Virus record (IMG/VR): IMGVR_UViG_3300048589_000254
Coordinates: 1-23,026 of that record
Source: a virus
Strand: one strand, 5' to 3'
DNA: 23,026 nt
Numbering within the stretch: position 1 is the stretch's first letter; each line of letters begins with the position of its first letter. The notes beneath the pieces are model-generated. The model was not told the origin of the DNA and made no database searches. It saw only the letters and a program-made list of their open reading frames with translations. A program made the translations under genes and the position numbers. This document shows, piece by piece, positions 4,951 to 23,026 of the stretch.

Positions 4951-6852
4951 TCAGGCTCCTACGGGAAGTTCAGCGGGCAAGCCCGCAGGGGGTTGAACCG
5001 CCATCTCGGGCGGCATCTGGTCGGGCATGGCGCCCGGAATCTGTGGCATCTGCGGCTGCAACGGCGGCAGCGGCGGGAAGAACTTGCCGATGTCGATGCG
5101 CTCGTCGAAGCGCTTCAACGTCTCGCGCAGCAGCTCGATCACGCCCTCGGCCTGGTCGTTCAGTCCGGCCTGCCGGAACTGGATCACCTGCTGCATGAAG
5201 CTCATCAACTGCGGCGCGAGCTGCACCCACTGCTCGCGCTCCTGCATGCGGTTCGGCTTGCCGGTCGAGCCGGCGCGAATCTCGACCTTGACCAGATCGA
5301 AGATGTCGTCCTTCGGCAGCGTCGGCCACACGTAGCCCGGGCCGGCGATGCGCTCGACCATCGGCTCGGCGAGCTCCTGCAGCAGAATCTGCGCCGCGTA
5401 CTCGGCCATCTCGGTTAGGTAGCCCTCCAGCGTGTCCTGCCGGTAGCTGGTGCGGGACTGCATGCCCTGCGCCTGGATCTCCGCTTCGGTGGCGGTCTTC
5501 GCCTTCTGGATGCTGGCCCGTGAGGCGTCCGAGGCGCCCGAGGTCTGCTCGAGGTCGCGCAGGATCGGCGTCGTGTCGTAGCTCACCGGGTCGATCGGCA
5601 CGGCCGGGAACGGCACGATCTCTCCCGCCAGCGGCGCCTGACTGCCGTTCGTGGTCACGCCCACCGCCTGACGGCCGCGCCGGTTCACGATCGCGTCCAC
5701 GTCCTCGTCGGTGAGCGCGCCACCCTTGCGGAACGCGAACCCGGGGCGATTCTCGCGCCGCGCCTGCGCAAGCTGCGTGCGCATCGAGTTGTACTCGTCC
5801 TGCAACCCGGCCCACTGCTCGACGTCGGCCACCGGGTAGAACTGCCCATCCACCTCGTTCCAGAAGATCGCAAAGAGCGGGTAGAACCTACGGCCGTTGC
5901 GCTCCAGCCGGTACGGATCACGCGCCCACTCTTTCGCCCCGAACTCGACCGTGTAGATCGTCTGCGCGCGCCGGTCCCAAATCTCGAACACCATCACGAA
6001 TTGCTGCCGATCGCGCTTCGACTGGCCCTGCTTGCCGGCCAGCGCGTCGCGCTTGTCCGCGTACTTCGCGCCCACCGGCTTTTTCCCGAAGCGGTCCTCG
6101 AAGTCCGAGCAGGTCATGACGATCCGGTGCGCGATCGCCCGGGCCTGCGGGTACTCGCTGAAGGTGGTCAGCGATTCGTCCAGGATGAGGATGTCCGCGT
6201 CCGACACGAAGTCGATCACCAGCCCCTCTTCCAACAGCACTTCGACCTGTTGCTCGAGCGCCGCGAGTTGGTCGCGCAGCTCGGCCTCTTTCGCCTCGCG
6301 GTCGGTCGCGTCCGGCGCCTGCACTTGATCGGTGAGCGACTGAATGCGCGCCAGGTTGTCCTGCGTGTCGGCGATGCGGTTCATGATGACCGGATCACGC
6401 GCATAGTCCCGCTGGTAGCTGACCTTCAGCCACGCGACGCCCGCAGTCATCGCCGAGGGAATCGCGCGCGTGATGCGGCGCTTCAACTTGCCGTCACGCA
6501 CGAACAGCCGGTTCAGCACGATTTCCATCGTCGCGCAGAACGTGTCGAGCGCCTCATAGGACGAATCGACGACCTGTTCTTCCGGCGCTACGTCGATCTC
6601 GGGGTCTTTCGCGTAGTACAGCGGCACCAGCGTCTGCATGATCCCGAGGATCAGGTTCGCCCGCACTTCCTCCGGGTCGCGCACCGCCTCGTCGTCCATG
6701 TGCTGGACGCCGCGGACGTACTTTTCCAGTTCCGCAATGCGCTGGCGCCTCGGCTTGTTGTCGTCGATCGCCGACTCGATCGCCGCCTGATACCGGCGGA
6801 TGAGCGCCGCGTCGCGCGGGTCAGTCTCGGGCTTGGCCTGTTCGTCGGTCAT
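4951..6852 (-). CDS. Portal protein
   Basis: A 633-residue protein, long even for a podovirus portal, which usually has 500-720 residues. The N-terminus (MTDEQAKPETDPRDAALIRRYQAA) is helical. A connector-like region follows (NLILGIMQTLVPLYYAKDPEI). Residues about 180-210 form a coiled coil (EAKEAELRDQLAALEQQVEVLLEEG). A conserved central part contains FYPVADVEQWAGLQDEYNSM and PLFAIFWNEVDGQFYP, and a helical crown carries MQSRTSYRQDTLEGYLTEMA. The C-terminus is proline- and methionine-rich (QPQMPQIPGAMPDQMPPEM). The portal forms the dodecameric DNA entry ring that docks the terminase and the adaptor. Its ATG overlaps the stop of the upstream gene (ATGA). Order, size and sequence features agree well with the assignment. 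Confidence 0.88.
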   Translation of the reverse strand: MTDEQAKPETDPRDAALIRRYQAAIESAIDDNKPRRQRIAELEKYVRGVQHMDDEAVRDPEEVRANLILGIMQTLVPLYYAKDPEIDVAPEEQVVDSSYEALDTFCATMEIVLNRLFVRDGKLKRRITRAIPSAMTAGVAWLKVSYQRDYARDPVIMNRIADTQDNLARIQSLTDQVQAPDATDREAKEAELRDQLAALEQQVEVLLEEGLVIDFVSDADILILDESLTTFSEYPQARAIAHRIVMTCSDFEDRFGKKPVGAKYADKRDALAGKQGQSKRDRQQFVMVFEIWDRRAQTIYTVEFGAKEWARDPYRLERNGRRFYPLFAIFWNEVDGQFYPVADVEQWAGLQDEYNSMRTQLAQARRENRPGFAFRKGGALTDEDVDAIVNRRGRQAVGVTTNGSQAPLAGEIVPFPAVPIDPVSYDTTPILRDLEQTSGASDASRASIQKAKTATEAEIQAQGMQSRTSYRQDTLEGYLTEMAEYAAQILLQELAEPMVERIAGPGYVWPTLPKDDIFDLVKVEIRAGSTGKPNRMQEREQWVQLAPQLMSFMQQVIQFRQAGLNDQAEGVIELLRETLKRFDERIDIGKFFPPLPPLQPQMPQIPGAMPDQMPPEMAVQPPAGLPAELPVGA

Positions 6853-7229
6853 TTGTCGGCGAGCATCCGTTCGATCTTGACCCGCTGCTCACCGGACAGG
6901 CCGGCGGACTGGCTTGGCCGAACGTCCATGTCCCGATCCACCTCGGAGTCGAGCGACGCGAGCGCGAGCTTGCCGCGCTGGATCGTCGTCATGATCCCGT
7001 CGTGCGCGAGCGAATCGGCAGCAAGTGCGGAGAGCGCCGCCGGCACGATGATCGGTTGGCCGTCGAACAGGCAGCCCTCGACCGAGTACACGCGGAACCG
7101 GCGGATGTCGCCGCGCTCGTCGCGCAGGTCGTCGTATCCCTCGAACCGCGCGCGCGGCGTGTTCATGGCGATCAGTTCGCCCAGGTCGAGCGAACGGCGC
7201 GTCTCGCGCAGGCTGGCGATGAGCTTCAT
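6849..7229 (-). CDS. Hypothetical protein upstream of portal
   Basis: A 126-residue soluble protein starting MKLIASLRETRRSLDLGELIAMN and ending QRVKIERMLADK. The middle contains FRVYSVEGCLFDGQPIIVPAAL. The ATG follows directly on a CGGGGG-N10-CCCCCG hairpin and has no clear Shine-Dalgarno, so its start is less certain. A TTG at 7292 would extend it by 21 residues over the preceding gene, but those residues look non-coding. It overlaps the portal start by ATGA. I do not recognise it. A place between terminase and portal is common for small head-assembly or portal-associated proteins, but no function can be assigned. Confidence 0.68.
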   Translation of the reverse strand: MKLIASLRETRRSLDLGELIAMNTPRARFEGYDDLRDERGDIRRFRVYSVEGCLFDGQPIIVPAALSALAADSLAHDGIMTTIQRGKLALASLDSEVDRDMDVRPSQSAGLSGEQRVKIERMLADK

Positions 7230-7251
7230 CGGGGGATGTGTACAACCCCCG

Positions 7252-7268
7252 GATTGGCTTAATCCACA
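7252..7268 (-). repeat. 17-bp direct repeat, copy 2
   Basis: Minus-strand TGTGGATTAAGCCAATC, identical to 3287-3303. Here it extends to a perfect GGATT-N5-AATCC inverted repeat. It begins two bases after the stop of the 76-residue gene and about 22 nt before the start of the gene preceding the portal. A second hairpin (GGGGG...CCCCC) follows. Confidence 0.6.
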
Positions 7269-7269
7269 G

Positions 7270-7500
7270 TCAGCGGTCCTCGGGCCAGCCAAGCGGATGC
7301 TTGATCGTCACCGCACCGCGGCGCTTGGCCGAAATATCGACGGTGCAAATCTCTTGGCCCTGCGCAGTCTCGACCTCCAGATAGCCGTTGCCGCAGTCGT
7401 CACGCGTCCCCCATACGTAGACCACTGCGTCAGGCGTCTGTTCGGCAATTCGCTGCAATGCTGAGATCAGCTCACCAATCGGAACCGGCTTCGCCTTCAT
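7270..7500 (-). CDS. Small hypothetical protein after terminase
   Basis: A 76-residue protein beginning MKAKPVPIGELISALQRIAEQTPDAVVYVWGT. It has a helix followed by alternating beta strands (DAVVYVWGTRDDCGNGYLEVE) and a basic C-terminal part. It lies 9 nt after the terminase large subunit stop, with a weak GGGGCG ribosome binding site. No family is recognised. Phages often carry small alpha-beta proteins of this kind next to packaging genes. The good spacing between flanking genes and coding-like composition support it as a real gene. Confidence 0.65.
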   Translation of the reverse strand: MKAKPVPIGELISALQRIAEQTPDAVVYVWGTRDDCGNGYLEVETAQGQEICTVDISAKRRGAVTIKHPLGWPEDR

Positions 7501-7509
7501 GATCCGCCC

Positions 7510-9078
7510 CTATGCCTTGTACCTGCTCCTCGGCCGCTCCACGGGCGCATCGAGCACCCGGGCCGGCACGACCCCGAGCGCGGGCGGTGCGGCCCGCTCC
7601 TTCGGCTGCACCGGCGCCAGCCCCCGCCCGAACTTCTGCATCCCGCGAGCCGCCAGCGAGAGCACGTCCACGCCATCGTCGAACGCGCCGGCCGGGAACG
7701 CAAGCAACTGGTCCATCAGCACCGGCACCCAAGGTTTGCCCTCGGGCACCGACAGCCAGCCCATTGCGATCAGCGCCTGCAAGCTGCGCGCGCGCGTCGG
7801 CTTGTCGTGGATCGACGCGAGCCACTCGAGCCAGCATGGCACGCCGCGCTGCTGCATGCGCTTGAGCAGGAACGGCTCCACGGCACGCCGGATCACGCCC
7901 GACTCGCCGAACCAGATCGCGGGCCGCCACTTGTCGATCAGGTCGATCTGACGCTCGATCCACACGTCGGATTGCGCCTGCTCGCGCCACCAGTCGAGCA
8001 AATACCAACGGGATTCGTGATCGACGCCAATCACCCCATGCTCGGTGTAGTCGCCGCCGTCCTCGGTCACGGCATAGTCCGACGCCCCGATCACGACCAT
8101 GCCGCGCGGCGCGATGCCATATCGGGCGATCTTCGTCGTCTCGAAGTAGCCACCGGAGTCGGGCGCAGGGCGCTGCTGGTAGAGGGACGACCAGGTGCGC
8201 GGGTTGGAGCGGAAGTTCTGCCAGTGCCGCTCGTCGAACCACTCCGGCCAGAGCATTTCGCCGGGCGCGCGCCCCAGCGGGTCGTCGGCACGTTCGGCCT
8301 GCGCCGGCAGGCACAGCACCTCCCACGTCTGTCCGTCGCGGCACTCGATCATGCCCGACCGGCCGTCGTACTTCTCGGGGAGGATGCCGCCGGCAAGGTC
8401 CGCCTCGTGCCAGCGGGTTTGCACCAGCACCACCCAGCCGCCGGGGATCAGGCGCGTCATCAGGTCGTCGTCGAACGCCTCGCGGGTTTTCTTGCGGATC
8501 ACCTCGGAGTCGGCGTCCTCGCGCCCCTTCACCGGGTCGTCGATCAGCAGCCCGTTGGCACGGTTGCCCGTGATGCCCGACAGGATGCCGCCCGCCAGAT
8601 ACTCTGAACCGTTCGTCAGCGCCCATTCGTCAGCCGCGGACGTGTCGGCAGCGATGCCCGCACCGAAGATTGCCGAGTACCCGGACTGACGGCAGATTTG
8701 CCGAGCTCGCCGGCCATGACGCCGCGCCAGGTCCGACCCGTAGGACGCCAGGATGATCCGGTAGCCCGGGTGCTTGCCCATGAGGTACGTGGGCGCGACG
8801 ACGCTCGTGTACGTCGATTTGGCGCTGCCCGGCGGCATGAACACCATCAGCCTGCCGTGCCTGCGCGCTGCGGTGCGCTCGATCGCCTCGAGCAGCAGCC
8901 GATGGTGCGCGGTGACGCTGGTCTCGATCGGCTGGAACAGCCATTCGTCGGGCTCGTCGCTGGCCGGCTTGCCCGGCACTTCGATCGCGTTGGCGTAGGC
9001 GACGAGGGATGCGCGGGCACGGCGGCGGCGCAGCAGTTCAGCCGCGGCCTGTGATGGCGATATGGGCGAGCTCGTCAT
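7510..9078 (-). CDS. terL: Terminase large subunit (DNA-packaging ATPase/nuclease)
   Basis: A 522-residue protein with both terminase domains. The N-terminal ATPase has Walker A MPPGSAKST at about residues 81-89 and Walker B-like GLLIDDPV at about 176-183. The motif ILASYGSDLARRHGRRARQI between them matches the family. The C-terminal RNase H-fold nuclease includes VIGASDYAVTEDGGDYTEHG and ends with DDGVDVLSLAARG, where acidic residues bind metal. It cuts concatemeric DNA and drives it through the portal. The start lies inside the last 40 nt of the small-subunit gene. This is the clearest late-gene assignment in the window. Overall it resembles the terminase 6-type family of podovirus-like prophages. 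Confidence 0.93.
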   Translation of the reverse strand: MTSSPISPSQAAAELLRRRRARASLVAYANAIEVPGKPASDEPDEWLFQPIETSVTAHHRLLLEAIERTAARRHGRLMVFMPPGSAKSTYTSVVAPTYLMGKHPGYRIILASYGSDLARRHGRRARQICRQSGYSAIFGAGIAADTSAADEWALTNGSEYLAGGILSGITGNRANGLLIDDPVKGREDADSEVIRKKTREAFDDDLMTRLIPGGWVVLVQTRWHEADLAGGILPEKYDGRSGMIECRDGQTWEVLCLPAQAERADDPLGRAPGEMLWPEWFDERHWQNFRSNPRTWSSLYQQRPAPDSGGYFETTKIARYGIAPRGMVVIGASDYAVTEDGGDYTEHGVIGVDHESRWYLLDWWREQAQSDVWIERQIDLIDKWRPAIWFGESGVIRRAVEPFLLKRMQQRGVPCWLEWLASIHDKPTRARSLQALIAMGWLSVPEGKPWVPVLMDQLLAFPAGAFDDGVDVLSLAARGMQKFGRGLAPVQPKERAAPPALGVVPARVLDAPVERPRSRYKA

Positions 9079-10926: not shown

Positions 10927-13077
10927 TCAGTCCAGTTTCGCGGCCGGCCCGAGTCGATAGCAGGGCACGTCGCGGCCCTTTTTTACGTCGCGGACCTTGA
11001 CGAGCTCGAGTACCTGGCACGACGCCCACTCAGTCACGATGCGCCTGGCTTGCGCTCGTGAGGACTCGTCGGAGCGATCCCAGCCGAGCCGATCGCAGAT
11101 CAGGGCGCCGATCCATGCGACGGACTGGGAGCTGTCGCGCAGGCAGGCGAGCGGGTCGGAAACGGCGCCGATTGCGGCCCAGATTCGCCGGCAGTCGTCG
11201 AGCGAGACGCCATCGAACGGCGACGGCGTGTCCCACGGCGTCGGCACTCCGATGCGGTCCTCGTCGCGGTCTGGGCGGGCGTTGCCGAGCCCGACGTCCC
11301 TGAGGAAGTACCAGTCGCGCGTAGCCATAGGTGGCGCGAGGTTCGGCTTTCCGCTGTGATTCGCCCAGACGTAGAAGCGGCGCTTTTCGATCGGCACGCC
11401 GAAGTCGGCGGCCTCCTTCTCCGACATGGGCGTGAGCGTGCGCACGGCCCGGCAGGCGTCCTTGATGGCCGAGGCCCCGCGGCCGTCCTCGACGCTCACC
11501 TCGTCGCCGTCTGAGCCCTTCCTGACGTGGTGGATGACATGGACGCCGCAGTCGCCCTCCTCTGCGACGCGGCGCAGTTGGGCGATGACCCGGTTCATCT
11601 CCGGGTTGCTGTTCTCGCTGACCGCGTGCAGCCCGACCAGCGGGTCGACAAGCAGCAGGTCGATTCCGCGTTCGGAGATCTGCGCCAGGATGGCGTCAAC
11701 GACGGCTCGGCGCACGATGACGCCCTCGCGCGAGGTCTCGGCGACCAGGTAGCGTCCTTCGCGGTCGGTGTCGACGAACAAGCGCCCGCCGAGTTCGTCG
11801 TCGGTGATGCCGTAGTGGAGGCAGATGGCGGCGAGTCGGCGCTCGATCTCCTCCATGTCGTCCTCGACGTTGATGTACCAGACGCGCAAAGGGCCGCGTT
11901 TCAGTGGCTTGCGGGTGTCGAGGTTGAACCCGCACGCCATCGTCACGAGGTCGTACAGGTTGATCTGGGTCTTGGCCGCGGCGCCAGGGGCAAAGGTTCC
12001 GGTGACGTAGCGCCGGATGAAGATACGCTTGTACAGCCAGTCGCGCGGCTCGATCGTGGCGGGGTCGCGCAGCTTGAACGGGCGGGCGTCGATCGGCCTG
12101 GATGGCTCCGGAGCTGGTTGCGCCGCTTTGGCCGCTGGCGCTGCGCCGCGGGCCCGCGGGTTCTGCCATCCGCGGGCAGCTGCGCGAGCGAAGATCGACT
12201 CGTAGTTGATGCTGGTCGGCTTGAAGCTGTGCCACTTCTGCCTGATCTGCTGGAAGTTGTACCCCGGATACGGCCGGCTCCATTCGTCCCAGAGCCAGAA
12301 GCCGTTGTCGCCCAGCGGCTTGAGCGCGTGGCCGATGTCGATCCAGCTCTGGTAGTTCGAGCAGTCGAGCCAGGCGAGCGCAGCGCGCAGGTCGTCCAGT
12401 GTCTCGGGGGGCGCGAAGCGTTCGCCGATCGGCGCGCTGGCCGCGGCGCGCGGCGATCCGGTGACGATCTCGAGCAGCCAGTTCGGGGCGGGCGCCAGGC
12501 TGGGTGCTTCGCCGGCCAGGACGTCCCAGTCGTCGAATGCGTAGGTGCCGTCGATCCGAGATGGCTCGACGATGATGTAGCCGCCGGAGCCGCGCACGTC
12601 CACGCCGGGGCCGACCTTCTCCTTCGAGCACTGCACCGACGCATCGCCGGCAAAGAAGTAGTGCCGTCCGCCGGACTGGCTGCGCGCCGTCTGCGTGTCG
12701 GGCAGCAGGCCGTGCTCGCGCTCGAGTGCCTCGACGGTGAGGTGGCCGTTCTTGTCGCTCCTGAAGTCGATGTCGAGCACCCAGCACTGCGCGCCGGTGG
12801 CCACGCCGATGTTGGCCATCGGCCACTTGCCCCACCAGGCGCGGATCGACTCGGGGTCGGTTGCGGCGTCCTGAAAGCCACGAGCCGTCAGCGGGTGCTT
12901 CCCGACGCGCTCGCAAGCGCCAGAGTGGCACGAGCAGCGGTTCGTGATCTCGCCGGTTTCCTTGTCGACGGACTGGTCGACCCAGTGAACCGGGAACACG
13001 GGCCAGCCGAGTGCGGCGTAGGCCAGCGCGTATTCGAGCATCGGACGCGACTGGCCGATCGGGACGACGGCGGCCAT
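10927..13077 (-). CDS. Prim-Pol / RepA-type bifunctional primase-helicase
   Basis: A 716-residue multidomain replication protein. Residues about 12-200 form a bifunctional primase-polymerase domain (PF09250 type), with catalytic VLDIDF (Asp 102, Asp 104), SGGRHYFF (His 139) and a CSCHSGAC cluster near 48-55. A PriCT-like linker follows at about 228-305 (LRAALAWLDCSNYQSWIDIGHAL). The C-terminal part is a RepA-like hexameric helicase, with Walker A variant APGAAAKTQ at about 363-371, Walker B DLLLVDPLVGL, and HVIHHVRKGSDGDE. It would prime and unwind DNA at the phage origin. The ATG at 13077 overlaps the upstream TAA (TAATG); an ATG at 13089 would add 4 residues. The Walker A has Ala in place of the Gly before Lys. 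Confidence 0.88.
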   Translation of the reverse strand: MAAVVPIGQSRPMLEYALAYAALGWPVFPVHWVDQSVDKETGEITNRCSCHSGACERVGKHPLTARGFQDAATDPESIRAWWGKWPMANIGVATGAQCWVLDIDFRSDKNGHLTVEALEREHGLLPDTQTARSQSGGRHYFFAGDASVQCSKEKVGPGVDVRGSGGYIIVEPSRIDGTYAFDDWDVLAGEAPSLAPAPNWLLEIVTGSPRAAASAPIGERFAPPETLDDLRAALAWLDCSNYQSWIDIGHALKPLGDNGFWLWDEWSRPYPGYNFQQIRQKWHSFKPTSINYESIFARAAARGWQNPRARGAAPAAKAAQPAPEPSRPIDARPFKLRDPATIEPRDWLYKRIFIRRYVTGTFAPGAAAKTQINLYDLVTMACGFNLDTRKPLKRGPLRVWYINVEDDMEEIERRLAAICLHYGITDDELGGRLFVDTDREGRYLVAETSREGVIVRRAVVDAILAQISERGIDLLLVDPLVGLHAVSENSNPEMNRVIAQLRRVAEEGDCGVHVIHHVRKGSDGDEVSVEDGRGASAIKDACRAVRTLTPMSEKEAADFGVPIEKRRFYVWANHSGKPNLAPPMATRDWYFLRDVGLGNARPDRDEDRIGVPTPWDTPSPFDGVSLDDCRRIWAAIGAVSDPLACLRDSSQSVAWIGALICDRLGWDRSDESSRAQARRIVTEWASCQVLELVKVRDVKKGRDVPCYRLGPAAKLD

Positions 13078-13262
13078 TACCGCTGCCATTCCACCCGGTC
13101 CTGCGCGTACCGCGACTGCCGATCGTCCAGTTCCCGCAAGTGCCTAGCCTGCACCCATCTTTCGCGGTGATCGCTGAACCGCACGCGCACGGCGGTTCCG
13201 TTCCTCTTGACGATCTCGACCTGCTGGCCGGCTCGGCGGCCGCCTGTGAGTTCGTGGGTCAT
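13077..13262 (-). CDS. Small basic hypothetical protein
   Basis: A 61-residue protein, MTHELTGGRRAGQQVEIVKRNG, followed by RVRFSDHRERWVQARHLREL. The beta-rich first half resembles a small SH3/KOW-like barrel and the second half is a basic helix. It overlaps its neighbours on both sides, ATGA at its start and TAATG at its end, so it is co-translated with the primase. It may bind nucleic acid and assist replication, but this is inference from charge and context. A longer frame exists upstream in an arginine-rich reading that overlaps the preceding gene and was not used. Confidence 0.65.
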   Translation of the reverse strand: MTHELTGGRRAGQQVEIVKRNGTAVRVRFSDHRERWVQARHLRELDDRQSRYAQDRVEWQR

Positions 13263-13627
13263 GCGGCACCCCCTGCGAGCAGCCTGCGCACCATCTCGAC
13301 CTGCGCTGACGAGAGTTCGACCGCGGCGCGATCGCCGGCCGTTGTGCGCACGTTCATCATCGCCATCGTGCCGTCGGACCAGAGCGCCGCGGCAAATCGG
13401 TTGGCGCGATCGACAGGCGCCCATCCGTCGCCAAGCTGAAAGCCGGCGCGGCCGTCCACCGTGGTCTTGACAATCGCGCCGTGGCGCATGGGAATGCGCA
13501 GATCGGCGTGGATGCCGGCGTAGTCACGGCCGATGGCGTTGCAGAGGTCAGCGACCGTCAGCGGCCCGCCCGCGAGCGCCTGCATGCATCGGTCAGCGAT
13601 GGTGCCGGGGCGGGGGGTGTAGGTCAT
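13259..13627 (-). CDS. Winged-helix replication-module protein
   Basis: A 122-residue protein starting MTYTPRPGTIADRCMQALAGG. PLTVADLCNAIGRDYAGIHADLRIPMRHGAIVKTTVDGRAGFQLG has the helix-helix-helix-wing order of a winged-helix DNA-binding domain. After residue 75 a less ordered part ends VEMVRRLLAGGAA. It starts at an ATG overlapping the CII-like gene stop (ATGA) and ends overlapping the next gene. Located directly before the primase in the first transcript from the Cro promoter, it could be an origin-binding or loader-type protein, as lambda O is in the same place. That is an analogy of position, not of sequence. Confidence 0.7.
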   Translation of the reverse strand: MTYTPRPGTIADRCMQALAGGPLTVADLCNAIGRDYAGIHADLRIPMRHGAIVKTTVDGRAGFQLGDGWAPVDRANRFAAALWSDGTMAMMNVRTTAGDRAAVELSSAQVEMVRRLLAGGAA

Positions 13628-14016
13628 GCAGCGCTCCTGAGCAGCCCGGCGCGCTCCATGCGCTTGGCGAGCGCCTCGAATCCGCGCTGCGCGTTGATGA
13701 ACTCGCGTTGAAGTTTCGCCCGTTCGTCTTCTGGCTCGACCGGCTGCGGGTCGGTGTAGCCTGTCTCCCGAGCGAGGAACAACATCAGCGAGTGGCAGCC
13801 GGCTTCCCGGCCACGCTTGGCGATGTACAGCAGGTCGAGCAGGTCGAACTTTTCCCGGCGCTCCGGATTGAGGCAGGCGTCGAAACGGTTGTGCGCCTCC
13901 CTGACCGGCAGGGACGGCCACATGGCGACGGCGAAGGCTTTGCGGCCACCGCATGCCCGCGCCACCTCTGCGATAGCTTCCTCGATTGACTCCACGAACA
14001 GGCTCGGCGTGTCCAT
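13624..14016 (-). CDS. CII-like phage regulator (Phage_CP76-type)
   Basis: A 130-residue protein starting MDTPSLFVESIEEAIAEVARACGG. The segment RFDACLNPERREKFDLLDLLYIAKRGREAGCHSLM, followed by LARETGYTDPQPVEPEDERA, resembles the phage regulatory CII (CP76) family, which activates the lysogenic pathway. It is the second gene after the Cro-like gene, the same position as lambda cII. The ATG has no strong Shine-Dalgarno. An operator-like half site lies about 14 nt upstream. Family naming rests on remembered pattern and context, so it is moderate. Confidence 0.6.
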   Translation of the reverse strand: MDTPSLFVESIEEAIAEVARACGGRKAFAVAMWPSLPVREAHNRFDACLNPERREKFDLLDLLYIAKRGREAGCHSLMLFLARETGYTDPQPVEPEDERAKLQREFINAQRGFEALAKRMERAGLLRSAA

Positions 14017-14029
14017 AGGCGTCCGGAAG

Positions 14030-14043
14030 TTAGGTGCGCGTAG
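14030..14043. promoter_or_regulatory. Degenerate operator-like site upstream of CII-like gene
   Basis: TTAGGTGCGCGTAG keeps the left half TTAGG of the 14-bp operator consensus, while the right half matches only in part (CGTAG instead of CCTAA). It lies just upstream of the CII-like gene. It could be a weak binding site or chance. Confidence 0.3.
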
Positions 14044-14087
14044 GGACTGCTGGCGCGTGGAAGATGGCGGCCATGGGAATCACGGGA

Positions 14088-14357
14088 TCAGGCGGCCGCT
14101 TTCGCGGGCTCGGTGGCAGGCACGGCCGGCGCACCGTCGGCGCCGATCAGCTCGGGCCAGATGCGATGCCAGTCGTCGGGGCGCAAGTCCCATCGCGGGA
14201 TGCCGGCCTTCCCTTCGATCTCGGCCCCCAGCTGAATCAGTCGATCCGATGGGATGCCCTTGCTGCGCCACTCGTGGACGCTGGGCGGCTTGATGCCGAG
14301 CAGCCGTGCGACCGTAGTCGTGCCACCCAGCTTGTCGATCAATTCTGCGTGGTTCAT
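14088..14357 (-). CDS. Cro-like repressor (YdaS/Cro-type helix-turn-helix)
   Basis: An 89-residue protein starting MNHAELIDKLGGTTTVARLLGIKPPSVHEW. The helix-turn-helix is at about residues 13-31, followed by RSKGIPSDRLIQLGAEIEGK and the typical Cro/YdaS ending RWDLRPDDWHRIWPELI. The C-terminal tail is alanine-rich. It is the first gene of the minus-strand transcript, opposite the repressor, in the lambda cro position. The predicted -10 (TACCAT, 14364-14369) ends 6 nt before the ATG, so transcription would begin at or beside the start codon and the mRNA would be leaderless. An upstream in-frame ATG at 14387 lies inside the promoter and was rejected. The recognition helix closely matches that of the repressor. 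Confidence 0.82.
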   Translation of the reverse strand: MNHAELIDKLGGTTTVARLLGIKPPSVHEWRSKGIPSDRLIQLGAEIEGKAGIPRWDLRPDDWHRIWPELIGADGAPAVPATEPAKAAA

Positions 14358-14363
14358 GACGAC

Positions 14364-14392
14364 ATGGTAGGTGTGCCTAATCTTCATGTCAA
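14364..14392 (-). promoter_or_regulatory. Promoter of the minus-strand operon (PR-like)
   Basis: On the minus strand a consensus -35 TTGACA (14387-14392), a 17-nt spacer and -10 TACCAT (14364-14369) lie just before the Cro-like gene. Operator A covers the spacer and overlaps the -10, and operator B overlaps the -35. Repressor binding would block this promoter. Confidence 0.75.
14367..14380. promoter_or_regulatory. Operator A
   Basis: GTAGGTGTGCCTAA matches the 14-bp consensus TTAGGNNNNCCTAA at all but the first base. It overlaps the spacer and -10 of the Cro-gene promoter, like a lambda OR site. Its centre is 23 bp from operator B. Confidence 0.75.
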
Positions 14393-14403
14393 GGACTGCC
14401 TAA
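14390..14403. promoter_or_regulatory. Operator B
   Basis: CAAGGACTGCCTAA keeps AGG-N4-CCTAA of the consensus. It overlaps three bases of the -35 of the Cro-gene promoter and lies between operators A and C, with centre spacings of 23 and 25 bp. Confidence 0.65.
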
Positions 14404-14414
14404 TGCGAGTGCGA

Positions 14415-14428
14415 TTAGGATTTCCTAA
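14415..14428. promoter_or_regulatory. Operator C, overlapping the repressor start codon and probable -10
   Basis: TTAGGATTTCCTAA is a full match to the consensus with perfect 6-bp arms. Its last base is the A of the repressor ATG. The TAGGAT inside it (14416-14421) is a -10-like hexamer six bases before that ATG; no good -35 is present, as expected for an activated maintenance promoter. Binding here would shut off the repressor gene, as OR3 does in lambda. Confidence 0.75.
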
Positions 14429-14859
14429 TGTCCACTCTGAAAGATCGGGTTACTCGCGCGTTTGAGCGGCGGCGCGCGATCGCCGCGCCCGGCGAGCGCG
14501 TGACGCAAGCTGCGCTGGCCCGTGCCGCGGGCGTCAAGCCGCCTTCGGTTGCCGACTGGTTCAACGGAAAGACCCATAGCTTGAAGGGCGAGGTGCTACT
14601 TGGGGCTGCGGCGTATCTGAAGGTGCGGCCGGAATGGCTGGGCTCCGGGAAGGGGCCGATGGAGATTGAAGGCCGCGGCCAGGTCGTCCAGTCGCTTCCG
14701 CAGCGCAAATCCGAGAGGCCGTGGCCCTTCCCGCGCGTTGATCGCGACCTGATCGACGATCTCGACCGCGATGCCTTGCATGACATCCAAACCTACATGC
14801 TGGGGGTGCTGTCAGGCCGCCCTAAAAGCCCCGGCGTCAAGCGGCGGGCGTCTCGCTAG
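14428..14859 (+). CDS. CI-like prophage repressor lacking a peptidase domain
   Basis: A 143-residue protein. Residues about 25-52 form a helix-turn-helix (VTQAALARAAGVKPPSVADWFNGK), followed by VLLGAAAYLKVRPEWLGSGKGPMEI, typical of CI/C2-type repressors. In place of the S24 auto-cleavage domain of lambda CI there is only a short C-terminal part (FPRVDRDLIDDLDRDALHDI and a basic tail GVKRRASR). It is the only gene of its direction next to three operators and diverges from the Cro-like gene. Operator C overlaps its ATG, and there is no Shine-Dalgarno, so it is probably leaderless like lambda cI. Without a cleavage domain, induction must work differently from RecA-driven self-cleavage. Confidence 0.8.
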   Translation: MSTLKDRVTRAFERRRAIAAPGERVTQAALARAAGVKPPSVADWFNGKTHSLKGEVLLGAAAYLKVRPEWLGSGKGPMEIEGRGQVVQSLPQRKSERPWPFPRVDRDLIDDLDRDALHDIQTYMLGVLSGRPKSPGVKRRASR

Positions 14860-14943
14860 AATCATCCCGTTTCGTCGGGGCTGCGGGCTGCCAATGTGCA
14901 CGCTCTGCCGTTTCGATGGGCCTGGTTAAGGAAGGAGGCAACG

Positions 14944-15237
14944 ATGCGTCTCGAGCCGCTGATCCTCGTCGCCATGATGGCCGGATGCGCCGCCTCTCAG
15001 CCCGCGCCACGCGGCTACTGGGATAAGCCGGGCGCGACGCGCGAGATGTACGAAACCGACCTTGCCGCGTGCGAGCTGGTCGAGATGTCGATGCCCCAGC
15101 AACAGCCTTCCGCCGCACGCACCGGCGCGCAAGCCTACTTCAACGCCCTCAACGCTGGCGACGATGCCCGCACGCGGTACGTCCGCGTGATGGACGCTTG
15201 CCTGAAAAGCAAGGGCTGGCGTCTGCGCTTCGACTGA
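14944..15237 (+). CDS. Lipoprotein in the rex position (candidate lysogenic conversion or exclusion gene)
   Basis: A 97-residue protein with a lipoprotein signal: a short N-terminus (MRLEP), a hydrophobic core LILVAMMAG and lipobox Cys at residue 15. The mature part contains YWDKPGATREMYETDLAACE, two further Cys, and CLKSKGWRLRF near the end. A strong GGAGG lies 5 nt before the ATG. It follows the repressor by 84 nt on the same strand with no terminator between, so it is probably made in lysogens. Lambda carries rexAB here, between cI and OL. A role in superinfection exclusion, or another change to the lysogen's envelope, is therefore inferred. Similar small outer-membrane lipoproteins occur in bacterial genomes, so a captured host gene is possible. 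Confidence 0.72.
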   Translation: MRLEPLILVAMMAGCAASQPAPRGYWDKPGATREMYETDLAACELVEMSMPQQQPSAARTGAQAYFNALNAGDDARTRYVRVMDACLKSKGWRLRFD

Positions 15238-15276
15238 CCCGGTTTTCTCTCGCGCCGCAAGCGCTCGAAAATAAAG

Positions 15277-15290
15277 TTAGGCGCACCTAT
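15277..15290. promoter_or_regulatory. Operator D
   Basis: TTAGGCGCACCTAT matches the consensus except the last base, which is also the first base of the early -35 box. Its centre is 25 bp from operator E. Confidence 0.75.
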
Positions 15291-15318
15291 TGACAAAGGG
15301 ATAAGGAGCGCCTAATCT
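15290..15318 (+). promoter_or_regulatory. Early plus-strand promoter (PL-like)
   Basis: Consensus -35 TTGACA (15290-15295), a 17-nt spacer and -10 TAATCT (15313-15318) drive the plus-strand early operon. Operator D abuts the -35, and operator E covers the spacer end and part of the -10. The transcript would start near 15325. Confidence 0.8.
15302..15315. promoter_or_regulatory. Operator E
   Basis: TAAGGAGCGCCTAA keeps AGG-N4-CCTAA of the consensus and overlaps the -10 of the early promoter, so binding would block early transcription. Confidence 0.7.
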
Positions 15319-15352
15319 CGCCTCCATGCACTGCTCACGCACGGAGGCCCAG

Positions 15353-15712
15353 ATGACCGACACCACCACCGCAGCCCGCCCGGCGCACACGCCGCGGTTC
15401 GGCCTGCCATCGACCTGCCACGCCTATCCGTGGGCCCTCGTGCGCCGCGGCGGCCAGGTCGACGGCCAGCGTGCCCGCACCCGGCTGGCCTACCTGACCG
15501 GCACCTACGTCCCGCGCGGCGCCACGAAGGCCGAGGCGATGACCGGCTTTTTCGTTCGCATCGATCGGCGCGGGCAAGTGTGGCGCGCGACGAAAGGCAT
15601 GGTCCGGATCGGCTGGGGCGACGTCGTGCAGTCATGGCGCCGTCAACCCAGCGCCGATCAGATCACGCGCGCTCGGCGCGCCGGCGACCGCGCAACCGGG
15701 AGCGCGTCATGA
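15353..15712 (+). CDS. First early-operon protein, unknown
   Basis: A 119-residue basic protein starting MTDTTTAARPAHTPRFGLPS, with GGAGG 5 nt upstream. An in-frame ATG at 15326 lies at the predicted transcript start but lacks a Shine-Dalgarno and adds poorly protein-like residues, so the later start is preferred. The middle (TGFFVRIDRRGQVWRATKGMVRIGWGDVVQSW) looks like a compact beta-rich domain. The C-terminus is arginine-rich and overlaps the next gene by ATGA. No family is recognised. As the first gene of the early operon it could be an antiterminator-like or host-modifying protein, but I see no motif for that. Confidence 0.7.
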   Translation: MTDTTTAARPAHTPRFGLPSTCHAYPWALVRRGGQVDGQRARTRLAYLTGTYVPRGATKAEAMTGFFVRIDRRGQVWRATKGMVRIGWGDVVQSWRRQPSADQITRARRAGDRATGSAS

Positions 15713-16845: not shown

Positions 16846-16871
16846 CCGGGCCGCAACCAGGAGAACGCACG

Positions 16872-17291
16872 ATGAGTGCCGTCTTGAAGGCCGTCCAGCC
16901 GGCCACCGAAACGCTGGAGTCCCTCGTGGACAAGTGGGTCATCGAGAAGCGCGCCGAGGAGGAGGCTGCGAAGCGCCGCGTGGCGATCGAGGAGGCGATC
17001 ATCGCCCGCACCGGCGAGCGCGACGAGGGTGCGCAGACGCACGAGCTCGCCGACGGCCGCAAGCTCACCGTGACCGCCAAGATCACCCGGACCGTGGACG
17101 AGGCGTTGTGGCGCCAGGTGGAGTCCCAGGTGCCCGCCGAACTGCGCCCGGTCCAGTGGGTGCAGAGCGCCAAACTCGACACCAAGGGCCTGCACTGGCT
17201 CATCGAGAACCGCCCCGAGGTCTACGCGGTCGTCGCCCGCGCGCTCACCGCGAAGAAGGCGAAGTCGTCCATCAGCGTGAAGGCGGTGTGA
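16872..17291 (+). CDS. Early protein preceding recombination genes, unknown
   Basis: A 139-residue protein starting [25 protein letters not shown], with AGGAG 8 nt upstream. A charged coiled-coil-like N-terminus ([24 protein letters not shown]) is followed by a beta-strand part ([22 protein letters not shown]) and a basic tail ([12 protein letters not shown]). Genes of this shape often precede SSB/annealing genes in phages. It may take part in the recombination module, from which the HNH gene now separates it. No catalytic residues are visible. Confidence 0.68.
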
Positions 17292-17292
17292 C

Positions 17293-17871
17293 ATGGCCAA
17301 GCGCGTGCGCCCTGATCTCTCTGGCCAGGCGTTCCATCGCTTGACGGTGGTCGCCGAAGCTGCGCGCGGTAGCAAGCACGAAGCGCAGTGGTCGTGCGTG
17401 TGCGAATGCGGCGCCGTGTCGATCGTCGGGACGCATGCGCTTCGCGCGGGGAAGCAGAAGTCGTGCGGCTGCCTCAAGCGGGAGCAAACCGCCGATTTCA
17501 ACCGGCGCACTAAGACGAGCAACGCGCGTGAGCGCTTCGAGAAGCGCTACGTCGTCGAGGAATCCACCGGGTGCTGGATCTGGACAGGCGCCAAGGACGG
17601 AAAGGGTTACGGCGTCATGCACGTCGATGGTCGGCAGCAAAAGATGCACCGCTTCTCGTTCGAGCTGGCGAACGGCCAGATCCCAGAGGGCGATGGATAC
17701 CACGGGATGTGCGTCTGCCACCGATGCGACAACCCGGCATGCGTGAATCCCTCGCACCTGTTTCTTGGCGCGATGGCCGACAACGTGGCCGACATGATGG
17801 CGAAGGGTCGCCATCGCACTAGGTGGGACATGAAACCCGCCGCAACGAAGGATGAACAGCAATGGCAGTGA
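17293..17871 (+). CDS. HNH endonuclease (putative homing type)
   Basis: A 192-residue protein. The N-terminal zinc-ribbon-like part has Cys 35, 37, 39 and SCGC (57-60). The C-terminal HNH domain reads [17 protein letters not shown], then [20 protein letters not shown]. It contains His 119, a Cys cluster at 140/142/145/150, Asn 152 and His 155, and ends [10 protein letters not shown]. This is the HNH_3 pattern of phage-borne homing endonucleases, which cut DNA and copy themselves. It stands between two genes that belong to one module, and its end overlaps the start of the ATPase gene by 10 nt. The ribosome binding site is weak. The gene probably arrived by insertion. Confidence 0.85.
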
Positions 17872-18575
17872 AGCTCATCAACAGCCGGGACGCGGCGCGC
17901 GTCAACGGTGTGAAGATCCTCGTGTACGGGCAGGCTGGCGCGGGCAAGACACGCCTGTGCGCCACGGCGCCGAACCCGGTAATCATCAGCGCAGAGTCCG
18001 GCCTGCTGTCCCTGCGCGAGTTCGACCTCCCGGTGATCGAAGTCTCGACGATCGCCGACGTTCACGAGGCGTACAAGTTCTTGGCCGAGTCCGAAGAGGG
18101 GAGCCAGTTCGCGTCCGTCTGCCTGGATTCGATCAGCGAGATCGCCGAGGTGGTGCTCGCGGCCGAGAAGAAGGCGACTCGTGACCCGCGCCAGGCTTAC
18201 GGCGCCCTGCAGGAGCAGATGGCCGAGCTGCTGCGGGCGTTCCGTGACCTGCCTGGGCGCAACGTCTACATGAGCGCGAAGATCGAACGGTCGAAGGACG
18301 AGACGACCGGCGCGATGCTCTATGCGCCATCGATGCCGGGCCAGCGCCTAGGTCAATCGCTTCCGTACCTCTTCGACGAAGTGTTCGCGCTTCGCGTCGA
18401 GAAAGACACCGAGGGGCGGCCAACGCGGTGGCTTCAAACGCAAGCTGATTTTCAGTACGCCGCTAAGGATCGCTCCGGCGCGCTCGATGCATTCGAGGCG
18501 CCGGACCTTGGCGCCGTCATCAACAAGATCACCCAACCCGCGGCCGAACCGGCCGCCGAAACCGAAGGAGCCTGA
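17862..18575 (+). CDS. Sak4-like RecA-fold ATPase (recombinase)
   Basis: A 237-residue AAA/RecA-core protein. It has Walker A GQAGAGKT at residues 23-30, then [19 protein letters not shown] and a Walker B-like strand [35 protein letters not shown] and [23 protein letters not shown] follow, as in the Sak4 family of single-strand annealing proteins. A low-complexity Ala/Glu tail ends the protein. Sak4 proteins act with a phage SSB; an SSB-like gene follows 2 nt later. With the nuclease they would form the phage recombination system. The ATG overlaps the end of the HNH gene. Confidence 0.85.
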
Positions 18576-20640: not shown

Positions 20641-20696
20641 ACCGCTACGCCGCCGCGCTGCTGATCGCGCTCATCGTCGCCGGGGTGCTCGCGTGA
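20637..20696 (+). CDS. 19-residue hydrophobic peptide
   Basis: MNRYAAALLIALIVAGVLA is a complete frame with AGGAGG 5 nt before its ATG. The ATG overlaps the previous stop (ATGA), and its own stop overlaps the GTG of the acetyltransferase gene. The sequence looks like a signal peptide or membrane helix. It stops exactly where the lipoprotein at 21133 has its lipobox Cys, TGA here against TGC there. It may be a real small membrane peptide or the remnant of a lipoprotein. Confidence 0.5.
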   Translation: MNRYAAALLIALIVAGVLA

Positions 20697-21145
20697 CTCT
20701 GCGCGTTGTGCCAGTGCTCCACAAGACAGCCAACGAGTTTGTGCGGCGCCTGCACAGGCACCACGGGCCAACGCCCGGAACGATCATCTGTGCCGGTGTT
20801 GCTGACGACGAACGACTCTGCGGCGTTGCGATTGCTGGCCGTCCTGTCGCGCCGGCATTTCAAGACGGCCGGACCATCGAGATCAATCGAGTTTGTACGG
20901 ACGGCACGCCTAACGCGTGCTCGATGCTCTATAGCGCAGTCCGCAAAGCAGCGCGCGCACTCGGGTACGAACGGATCATTACCTACACGTTGCCAGAGGA
21001 AGGCGGCGCCAGCTTGCGCGCTGCCGGGTTCGTGTTCGATGGCGAAGCTGGCGGCCCTGCGCGCCTCTGGCACAACAGGCCAAACCGGAAGGTGCAGCCG
21101 GTCGGCGAGGACATGGTAGGAGGGAAATGGCGATGGGTAGCGTGA
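20693..21145 (+). CDS. XF1762-type phage N-acetyltransferase
   Basis: A 150-residue protein starting at GTG in a GTGA overlap. The pattern HKTANEFVRRLHRHHGPTP, followed by VADDERLCGVAIAGRPVA, EINRVCTDGTPNACSMLYSA and ALGYERIITYTLPEEGGASL with RAAGF, is that of the XF1762 acyltransferase family of phages. This is a GNAT-like fold using acetyl-CoA. The target is unknown. Its DNA looks lower in GC than the recombination genes, suggesting an accessory gene gained on its own. Its 3' end overlaps the start of a small lipoprotein gene. Confidence 0.8.
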   Translation: MTLRVVPVLHKTANEFVRRLHRHHGPTPGTIICAGVADDERLCGVAIAGRPVAPAFQDGRTIEINRVCTDGTPNACSMLYSAVRKAARALGYERIITYTLPEEGGASLRAAGFVFDGEAGGPARLWHNRPNRKVQPVGEDMVGGKWRWVA

Positions 21146-21264
21146 TGCGAGTCGTAATCGTGCTCATCGTCGCCGGCCTGGTGGCATGCGGCTCTGCGTC
21201 CGACGACCCGGCGCAGGCGAACGTGGTCGAGAAACCGGCGCAGGTAGCGCCGAGCAAGGAGTGA
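21133..21264 (+). CDS. Small lipoprotein (43 residues)
   Basis: MGSVMRVVIVLIVAGLVAC is a complete lipoprotein signal with lipobox Cys at residue 19. A short hydrophilic tail of about 24 residues ends QVAPSKE. AGGAGG lies 9 nt before this ATG; an ATG at 21127 is also in frame but only 3 nt from the site. The first 13 nt lie inside the end of the acetyltransferase gene in another frame. Small lipoproteins in phages include Rz1-type spanins, but no Rz partner is nearby. An envelope or exclusion function is only a possibility. Confidence 0.6.
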   Translation: MGSVMRVVIVLIVAGLVACGSASDDPAQANVVEKPAQVAPSKE

Positions 21265-21958: not shown

Positions 21959-22779
21959 CCCCCGACGAACTCCGCGCGCTGGCCGATGCGCTATGGGTAG
22001 CGATGTCCTTTCATGCGCCCGACAGCGACGCCCGCAACGCCCTGTTGCTGGCGAGCGTCTACCTGCGCGCACAGGCCGATGCGCAGCCGGTGGCGGCCGT
22101 GCCCGTAATACAGGAGCGTGGTCCGTGGCTGGCAGGGCGAGACAAGCAACAAGCGTGGAAGCAACAAGTGTGGATCGAGTCGGACGACTTCACGCACGAC
22201 GTGCGCCTTGACGTTACCGGCGACTTCGAGAGCGACGGCCACAAATTCGCCTACGCGCAGGAAATCGCTCGCCGACTGAACGCTGCGCCAGCCGCACCGC
22301 AGGCCGAGCAGCCTATCGACCTCGATGCGGTCGCCATGCAGCAAATGCGACAGGCGGCGGCAGAGTCAACGTGGATGCCGAGTGAGTACACCAGCAACGA
22401 CTGGATCGCCGACGTTTGTAGGTGGCTGCGCGATGGCCCGCCAGCGGCCGCACCGCCGGCCGAGCCAGACGACCCGCACATGATCGTGGCAGAGGATCGC
22501 TTTCCAGACGTGCCGGCCGAACGATGGAAACCTTGTCCTCAGTGTGGCGAGGACTTTGACCGAGAGTGCCCGATCTGCGACGGACTCGGCAGGGTGCTTG
22601 CGACTGACGGTGAGCAGGCCGAGCCGAAGCGCGAGCCGTTGACATATGAGCAGCTTGTATCTGCCTGCTATACCTACCGCCACGACTTCGGGTTGCTCGA
22701 CCCGGACGAGCAGGAACTCGTGATTGAAGAAGCGGGGCGGTGGGCCAAGGCGTTTGGAATCGGAGGCAGCGATGAGTGA
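21955..22779 (+). CDS. Mosaic phage protein with central zinc-finger-like CxxC pair
   Basis: A 274-residue protein. The N-terminal part (MTPDELRALADALWVA, then LLLASVYLRAQADAQPVAA) is a common opening of variable early phage proteins. A middle region has TGDFESDGHKFAYAQEIARRLNAA. Residues about 195-212 contain CPQCGEDFDRECPICDGLG, a DnaJ-like zinc site with two CxxC pairs. The C-terminus is helical (ELVIEEAGRWAKAFGIGG). Linkers rich in Ala and Pro separate the parts, suggesting assembly from modules. It starts with an ATGA overlap. Its role is unknown. Confidence 0.7.
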   Translation: MTPDELRALADALWVAMSFHAPDSDARNALLLASVYLRAQADAQPVAAVPVIQERGPWLAGRDKQQAWKQQVWIESDDFTHDVRLDVTGDFESDGHKFAYAQEIARRLNAAPAAPQAEQPIDLDAVAMQQMRQAAAESTWMPSEYTSNDWIADVCRWLRDGPPAAAPPAEPDDPHMIVAEDRFPDVPAERWKPCPQCGEDFDRECPICDGLGRVLATDGEQAEPKREPLTYEQLVSACYTYRHDFGLLDPDEQELVIEEAGRWAKAFGIGGSDE

Positions 22780-23026
22780 CATGACACAAGCCGCGCTCGA
22801 CGTTCTCGCGGAGCGTCGCAGGCAGATCGAGGCTGAGGGATGGACGCCTGAGCACGACGATCAACACAGCAATTGGGAACTGTCCCGTGCAGCCGTTTGC
22901 TACGGCGACATGGGCGGCAATGGCCCATTCAGCCACCCGCACCCAGCGCACCCACCGCAAGGCTGGCCGTGGCACTGGACATGGTGGAAGCCGTCAGACG
23001 ACCCACGCCGCAACCTCGTCAAAGCC
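22772..23026 (+). CDS. Conserved phage protein, cut by the window edge
   Basis: An open frame of 85 codons with GGAGG 6 nt before the ATG, overlapping the previous gene. It starts MSDMTQAALDVLAERRRQIEAEGWTPEHDD and contains WPWHWTWWKPSDDPRRNLVKA. The motifs ERRRQIEAEGWTPEHDD and WWKP...RRNLVKA belong to a widespread early phage protein family of unknown function. The C-terminal part lies outside the window. Confidence 0.8.
   Translation, partial: MSDMTQAALDVLAERRRQIEAEGWTPEHDDQHSNWELSRAAVCYGDMGGNGPFSHPHPAHPPQGWPWHWTWWKPSDDPRRNLVKA

What the first reader, a model, noticed from the sequence alone, without database searches (positions are those of the whole stretch)
14944..15237. Lipoprotein gene between repressor and PL-like operators, the lambda rex position
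A clear lipoprotein with a strong ribosome site follows the repressor on the same strand and ends before the early operators. Genes at this place are usually expressed in lysogens and protect against other phages. Rex is an ion-channel type system; a 97-residue lipoprotein would be a different exclusion or envelope-modifying factor.
Basis: partly seen in the sequence, partly recalled or inferred. Interest (0 to 1): 0.65.

Follow-up and report, generated by a model that had tools for sequence, protein, structure and literature searches.

The report
Prophage lipoprotein gene beside the repressor
A bacterial virus that can lie dormant in its host carries, right behind its master-repressor gene, a gene for a small lipid-anchored surface-layer protein that probably helps the infected cell shut out rival viruses, and many related viruses fill the same spot with unrelated proteins of the same type.

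Summary
Window 14944-15237 (+) encodes a 97-aa lipoprotein: lipobox MAGC, AAGGAGG ribosome site, codon bias matching its neighbours, and 0.005 such ORFs expected per window by chance. It lies 84 nt behind an HTH repressor with no terminator between, and ends 40 nt before an early promoter. That promoter carries the same operator (TTAGGN4CCTAA) as the cro/repressor promoters. A near-identical contig carries an integrase, so the phage is temperate. The protein is a sequence orphan.

Two collinear sister phages show an exchangeable cassette. One has a different repressor plus a 62-aa membrane protein in this slot. The other has neither repressor nor lipoprotein.

Across 52 non-redundant relatives, lipoprotein genes are about 14-fold enriched in this slot. 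They are almost all unrelated in sequence, none has Asp at +2 (outer membrane predicted), and 12 of 14 have exactly two mature cysteines. One disulfide is also the signature of the Gram-negative exclusion lipoproteins Llp, Cor and Rtp45.

Best reading: a lysogen-expressed outer-membrane lipoprotein, cotranscribed with the repressor, that excludes superinfecting phages at the receptor or DNA-entry step. Position and class are well supported; exclusion itself is inferred (about 0.5).

The parts
14944..15237 (+). 97-aa lipoprotein: signal peptide 1-14, lipobox MAGC with lipidated Cys15 and Ala at +2, mature Cys43 and Cys86, C-terminus CLKSKGW
14932..14938 (+). Shine-Dalgarno AAGGAGG, 5 nt before the ATG
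   Evidence: Sequence; scored
14428..14859 (+). HTH repressor, 143 aa, no S24/LexA domain found; its ATG overlaps an operator
   Evidence: PF01381 E=2.3e-7; phrog_4 and phrog_8 transcriptional repressor/regulator
14860..14943 (+). 84-nt gap between repressor and lipoprotein; no terminator-like or + strand promoter-like site; folding no better than shuffles (z=0.31)
14088..14387 (-). Cro-like regulator (P22_Cro/YdaS/carph-isopro type); probable true start is the ATG at 14357
   Evidence: PF14549 E=1.6e-7, PF15943 E=1.5e-11; promoter geometry
14364..14392 (-). PR-like promoter TTGACA-17-TACCAT
14367..14380 (.). operator GTAGGTGTGCCTAA
14390..14403 (.). operator CAAGGACTGCCTAA
14415..14428 (.). 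operator TTAGGATTTCCTAA (perfect), overlapping the repressor start codon
15277..15290 (.). operator TTAGGCGCACCTAT at the PL-like promoter
15302..15315 (.). operator TAAGGAGCGCCTAA at the PL-like promoter
15290..15318 (+). PL-like early promoter TTGACA-17-TAATCT (weak -10), same operator geometry as PR
   Evidence: Read from the sequence; below the threshold of the scan
15353..15712 (+). first early gene (119 aa, unknown); start of the early + operon
14085..14113 (.). left cassette boundary: 29 bp identical in the sister phage L053
   Evidence: similar stretch in L078
15329..15357 (.). right cassette boundary: 29 bp identical in L053

Best explanation
The gene is an accessory gene of the immunity cassette of a temperate phage. 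Read-through from the repressor's maintenance promoter expresses it in the lysogen (inferred from the 84-nt gap with no terminator and from the cI-bstA precedent). The product is exported, lipidated on Cys15, sent to the periplasmic face of the outer membrane (Ala at +2; inferred from the E. coli Lol rule) and probably closed by a Cys43-Cys86 disulfide. There it most likely binds an outer-membrane phage receptor or a factor of the DNA-entry path, so that related phages cannot adsorb or inject. It would work like Llp, Cor or Rtp45 (receptor blocked allosterically from the periplasm) or like Ltp (DNA injection blocked). Shown here: the gene, its lipoprotein features, its place between repressor and operator-controlled early promoter, temperateness via a near-identical contig, cassette exchange, and enrichment of lipoproteins in this slot. 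Inferred: expression, localisation, disulfide, exclusion activity and target.
For: Gene and slot. Temperate: integrase in the near-identical contig. Cassette exchange: sister L053 lacks both repressor and lipoprotein between 29-bp identical boundaries, and sister L078 has a different repressor followed after 3 nt by a 62-aa membrane protein. Slot preference: 10 lipoprotein ORFs in 114 kb-strand of slot against 5 in 815 elsewhere over 52 loci, 14-fold, p=1.3e-6; 10.7- to 15.5-fold for three slot widths. All-against-all BLASTP found only two marginal similarities (E of 0.006 or worse), and +2 residues were Ala, Glu, Gln or Gly. Exactly two mature cysteines in 12 of 14, against 21% of control ORFs, p=6e-7. 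Precedents: Ltp in a lysogeny module, transcribed in the prophage and blocking injection (PMC3952083); cI-bstA on one transcript across 88 bp (PMC7067206); the repressor-to-n region as a hotspot holding rexAB and bstA (PMC8585504); [quoted passage not shown]); Lpp021 and Lpp010 excluding phages (PMC11893012).
Against: No match in Pfam, PHROGs, NCBIfam, PADLOC or PDB sequences, and no fold match, so nothing ties this protein to exclusion directly. Paired cysteines are common in periplasmic proteins of any function. Known Gram-negative exclusion lipoproteins usually lie elsewhere in the genome (mEpimmI: in the structural cluster). The host and its receptor are unknown. The slot test was defined after a first look at the same loci.
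Confidence: 0.5

Rival explanations
1. A lysogenic-conversion lipoprotein that changes the host envelope for host fitness (stress, serum, grazing or surface traits, like Bor or Lom) rather than excluding phages; the repressor transcript simply gives steady lysogen expression.
For: Same position, lipoprotein and cysteine evidence. Lambda expresses Lom and Bor from the prophage besides rexAB (PMC7067206). L031's slot lipoprotein matches a domain of unknown function found in cellular proteins (DUF4468).
Against: Genes characterised at this exact position (rexAB, bstA, ltp) act against phages. The slot changes content between otherwise collinear sisters along with the immunity type, as expected for phage-phage competition.
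Confidence: 0.28
2. A regulatory or lytic-phase accessory: the lipoprotein tunes the phage's own cycle (lysis timing, lysogeny choice) or is made mainly after induction.
For: It lies within the immunity region, and RexA is reported to bias the lambda switch toward the lytic state (abstract of PMC11077077). Spanin lipoproteins exist in phages.
Against: It lies on the repressor strand, not in the late or lysis region, with no spanin partner beside it. The sister works without it.
Confidence: 0.1
3. A passenger gene of host origin with no selected function for the phage, kept because insertion behind the repressor is harmless.
For: Orphan sequence. Similar two-cysteine GW-ending lipoproteins may be cellular; weak similarity to the L058 lipoprotein.
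Against: Repeated filling of the slot with unrelated envelope proteins is hard to explain by neutral insertion. Strong ribosome site and intact frame.
Confidence: 0.1
4. A chance open reading frame in a GC-rich genome.
For: High GC makes long spurious frames common.
Against: 0.005 lipoprotein-like ORFs with a strong SD expected per window; codon-position GC like real genes.
Confidence: 0.02

Closest known systems
Ltp superinfection-exclusion lipoprotein of Streptococcus phage TP-J34 (PF07553; PMC3952083)
   Same: Small lipoprotein in the lysogeny module, beyond the repressor on the repressor strand; [quoted passage not shown]
   Different: Gram-positive host and cytoplasmic-membrane anchor. 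No PF07553 match here. Ltp is separated from cI by a metalloproteinase-motif gene.
Gram-negative exclusion lipoproteins Llp (T5), Cor (phi80, T1), Rtp45 and Lpp021/Lpp010 (PMC9586334, PMC12685063, PMC11893012)
   Same: Small outer-membrane lipoprotein with one cysteine pair in the mature part (disulfide shown for Llp, Cor and Rtp45); exclusion demonstrated.
   Different: No sequence family match. Those genes lie beside the receptor-binding protein (Llp) or in the structural cluster (mEpimmI), not next to the repressor.
BstA of Salmonella prophage BTP1 (PMC8585504, PMC7067206)
   Same: Second gene of a repressor operon; intergenic gap 88 bp (84 here).
   Different: BstA acts inside the cell by abortive infection at phage DNA replication sites; it is not a lipoprotein.
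RexAB of lambda
   Same: Position between repressor and early leftward-type operators, repressor strand.
   Different: Two-gene system of a DNA-binding sensor and an ion channel; here one exported lipoprotein.
SieA of P22 (PMC10883804)
   Same: Prophage-expressed envelope protein that blocks DNA entry.
   Different: Inner-membrane protein, not a lipoprotein, different locus.

Membership tests
Lambda rex-position accessory gene | Directly downstream of the repressor, same strand, before the PL-type operators | tested here: met
Lambda rex-position accessory gene | Exchanged with the immunity region between related phages | tested here: met
   Sisters L053 and L078
Lambda rex-position accessory gene | Expressed in the lysogen from the repressor transcript | not testable with these tools
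   Only the absence of terminator-like and + strand promoter-like sites in the gap
RexAB | RexA/RexB homology, two-gene system | tested here: not met
   No Pfam, PHROGs, NCBIfam or PADLOC match; single exported gene
Ltp family (PF07553) | Lipoprotein_Ltp domain | tested here: not met
   (controls rang)
Ltp family (PF07553) | Lipoprotein in the lysogeny module | tested here: met
Llp/Cor/Rtp45-type exclusion lipoprotein | Small outer-membrane lipoprotein (lipobox, no Asp at +2) | tested here: met
   Sequence only
Llp/Cor/Rtp45-type exclusion lipoprotein | One intramolecular disulfide | tested here: inconclusive
   Exactly two mature cysteines, Cys43 and Cys86; bond not shown
Llp/Cor/Rtp45-type exclusion lipoprotein | Sequence homology to a known member | tested here: not met
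   No match in any PHROG or Pfam family; no phage record by tblastn
Llp/Cor/Rtp45-type exclusion lipoprotein | Expression blocks adsorption or DNA entry | not testable with these tools
   Needs infection assays

The most novel reading that the evidence does not exclude
In a broad set of Gram-negative temperate phages sharing this cro-like gene, the slot behind the repressor is a dedicated hotspot for envelope-targeted exclusion proteins. Unrelated two-cysteine outer-membrane lipoproteins (and small membrane proteins) are swapped in and out with the immunity type, each blocking a different receptor or entry route, so that repressor immunity and receptor exclusion travel as one exchangeable unit.
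Probability: 0.4. Interest if true: 0.72.

Novelty: new variant of a known kind. Interest (0 to 1): 0.5.

Why it matters
If true, a simple positional rule (first gene behind the repressor, lipobox, paired cysteines) would find many uncharacterised exclusion proteins in Gram-negative prophages without homology searches, and would link heteroimmunity to receptor blocking on one exchangeable cassette. Each such lipoprotein would also point to an outer-membrane protein that phages use as receptor. The three sister phages (lipoprotein, membrane protein, empty slot) make the idea directly testable.

Tried and rejected
Homologues of the lipoprotein: viral contigs gave only an identical copy; genome contigs none; phage records none; plasmids one non-significant hit; 369 whole genomes of the class of a Burkholderia reference none at E<=0.001, without a positive control. 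The GW-ending lipoprotein of L058 is only a weak pairwise match (E=0.001 for a single comparison, 26% identity over a gapped alignment), and a profile of the two found nothing new. AlphaFold2 on the single sequence gave a three-helix model (pLDDT 70, the five models disagree), with no PDB or viral fold match at E<=0.001, so no function was drawn from it. The stable-looking gap RNA was rejected as a structure (z=0.31), and Rfam found nothing. The slot enrichment was checked at other settings: without the SD filter it drops to 2.4- to 3.7-fold (p 7e-3 to 2e-4), and with SD>=5 there are too few cases. A search for slot content in another 369 genomes via the Cro-like gene gave five genomes, with membrane proteins rather than lipoproteins behind the repressor in L079, L082 and L083.

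Full report
WHAT IS THERE. The window is a 23,026-base IMG/VR virus record. Replication genes run leftward: a Prim-Pol gene at 10927-13089 (-) and a phrog_24214 gene at 13624-14016 (-). A P22-Cro/YdaS-like regulator follows at 14088-14387 (-). A divergent HTH repressor lies at 14428-14859 (+) and the lipoprotein at 14944-15237 (+). An early rightward operon starts at 15353 and includes an HNH gene, a Sak4-type annealing protein, a single-strand-binding-type protein and a Cas4-type exonuclease. Terminase and portal genes lie on the left. The lipoprotein has a short positively charged start, a hydrophobic stretch and the lipobox MAGC; AAGGAGG stands 5 nt before its ATG.

NOT CHANCE. In 200 order-1 Markov copies of the window, lipoprotein-like ORFs of 60-260 aa with an SD of 6 or more nt occur 0.005 times per copy. 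GC by codon position (0.66, 0.52, 0.83) matches neighbouring real genes.

THE REX POSITION IS REAL. TTAGGN4CCTAA with up to two mismatches occurs nine times in the window against 1.2 expected, and no shuffle of 100 reached nine. Three sites lie between the cro-like gene and the repressor and two at 15277-15315. PR is TTGACA-17-TACCAT. Reading the sequence gives a partner TTGACA-17-TAATCT at 15290-15318, with an operator starting 6 nt after the -35 in both. The perfect palindrome at 14415-14428 overlaps the repressor's start codon. No terminator-like site was found in 14000-15500, and the 84-nt gap folds no better than shuffles, so read-through is the simplest expectation. The phage is temperate: a contig 100% identical across the cassette (99.8% over 12 kb) continues to a tyrosine integrase gene at the far end of the early arm.

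CASSETTE EXCHANGE. L052/L053, found by the Prim-Pol gene (76% identity), are collinear with the window at 72-80% nucleotide identity on both sides. Between two islands of 29 identical bases (window 14085-14113 and 15329-15357) the content differs. L053 has a 77-aa cro-like gene, a different repeated palindrome (AACCATAGTT) near both promoters, a terminator-like hairpin, and neither repressor nor lipoprotein. A third relative, L078, is 90% identical over the first early genes and carries yet another cro-like gene and repressor. Three nt behind that repressor lies a 62-aa single-pass membrane protein, then a PL-type promoter with its own palindromes. The slot is therefore exchanged with the immunity type and in two of three cases holds an envelope protein.

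THE SLOT IN RELATIVES. The cro-like gene and its neighbour brought in some 60 loci. After removing near-duplicates, 52 loci were scanned with fixed rules. Ten lipoprotein ORFs fell in the slot (114 kb-strand) and five elsewhere (815 kb-strand): 14-fold, p=1.3e-6. Three slot widths gave 10.7 to 15.5-fold; dropping the ribosome-site filter weakens it to 2.4 to 3.7-fold. Caveats: the slot was defined after a first look at many of these loci, the lysis region with its own lipoproteins is mostly outside the loci, and no dedicated signal-peptide predictor was at hand. The 14 slot lipoproteins examined (ten, this one, and three that missed the ribosome-site rule) are not related to each other in sequence beyond two marginal hits, and all have Ala, Glu, Gln or Gly at +2. 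Twelve of 14 have exactly two cysteines in the mature part, against 21% of 359 coding-like control ORFs (p=6e-7). This says they are real exported proteins with probably one disulfide; it does not by itself say what they do, because paired cysteines are usual in the periplasm. Other relatives carry small membrane or secreted proteins in the slot (L007, L016, L018, L043, L079, L082).

HOW IT PROBABLY WORKS. Precedents meet on the same reading. The cI-bstA operon is one transcript across an 88-bp gap, and the repressor-to-n region is a known hotspot holding rexAB and bstA (PMC7067206, PMC8585504). Ltp, a lipoprotein in the lysogeny module of TP-J34, is transcribed in the prophage and stops DNA injection (PMC3952083). 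Llp of T5 and Rtp45 of Rtp are small outer-membrane lipoproteins with one disulfide that bind the periplasmic face of FhuA or LptD and change the outer loops so that the phage cannot bind (PMC9586334, PMC12685063). Lpp021 and Lpp010 of mEpimmI prophages exclude phages when expressed alone (PMC11893012). I therefore commit to a lysogen-expressed outer-membrane exclusion lipoprotein. Adsorption block by receptor binding is somewhat more likely than injection block, given the predicted outer-membrane site. Expression, location, disulfide and activity are all inferred.

LIMITS AND NOVELTY. The protein matches no family in Pfam, PHROGs, NCBIfam or PADLOC, no PDB sequence and no fold. It is not a Rex, Ltp or Cor family member by sequence; it resembles them in position or design. 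What is new is the combination: in the Gram-negative cases read here, exclusion lipoproteins lie by the receptor-binding gene or in the structural cluster, whereas here the class recurs beside the repressor and moves with immunity. I found no paper in the held library describing this, but subscription journals are largely missing from it.

Noticed in passing
L053 (reverse strand 6660-8020) against window 14085-15357: The sister phage's immunity region is minimal: one 77-aa cro-like regulator and palindromes at both promoters, no divergent repressor. Either its repressor lies elsewhere, or the cro-like protein is the sole repressor, or it has lost lysogeny.
   Followed up: partly
window 20693-21142 (+): Early gene matching the Mom family (PF25680, E=3.5e-7, above cut-off), suggesting DNA modification against restriction.
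   Followed up: no
window 21127-21264 (+): A second, 45-aa lipoprotein-like ORF in the early operon; the sister L053 has a similar small one (MNRYALAILLVLAGLSAC...) at the corresponding place.
   Followed up: no
window 16867-18534: Relative to L053 this stretch carries an HNH endonuclease and a different Sak4-type annealing protein at the same place: another module swap.
   Followed up: no
window 14428-14859: The repressor has no recognisable S24/LexA cleavage domain, so induction may not be by RecA-driven self-cleavage; its start codon lies inside a perfect operator palindrome.
   Followed up: partly
window 22777-23026: The window stops matching its otherwise 99.8-100% identical twin contig (IMGVR_UViG_3300048837_000480) at 22776; the twin goes on to an integrase 2-3 kb further.
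   Followed up: partly
L058 3053-3421 (-): Slot lipoprotein with a glycine-zipper-like stretch and the same ending style (CMAGRGW against CLKSKGW here); possibly a distant relative.
   Followed up: partly
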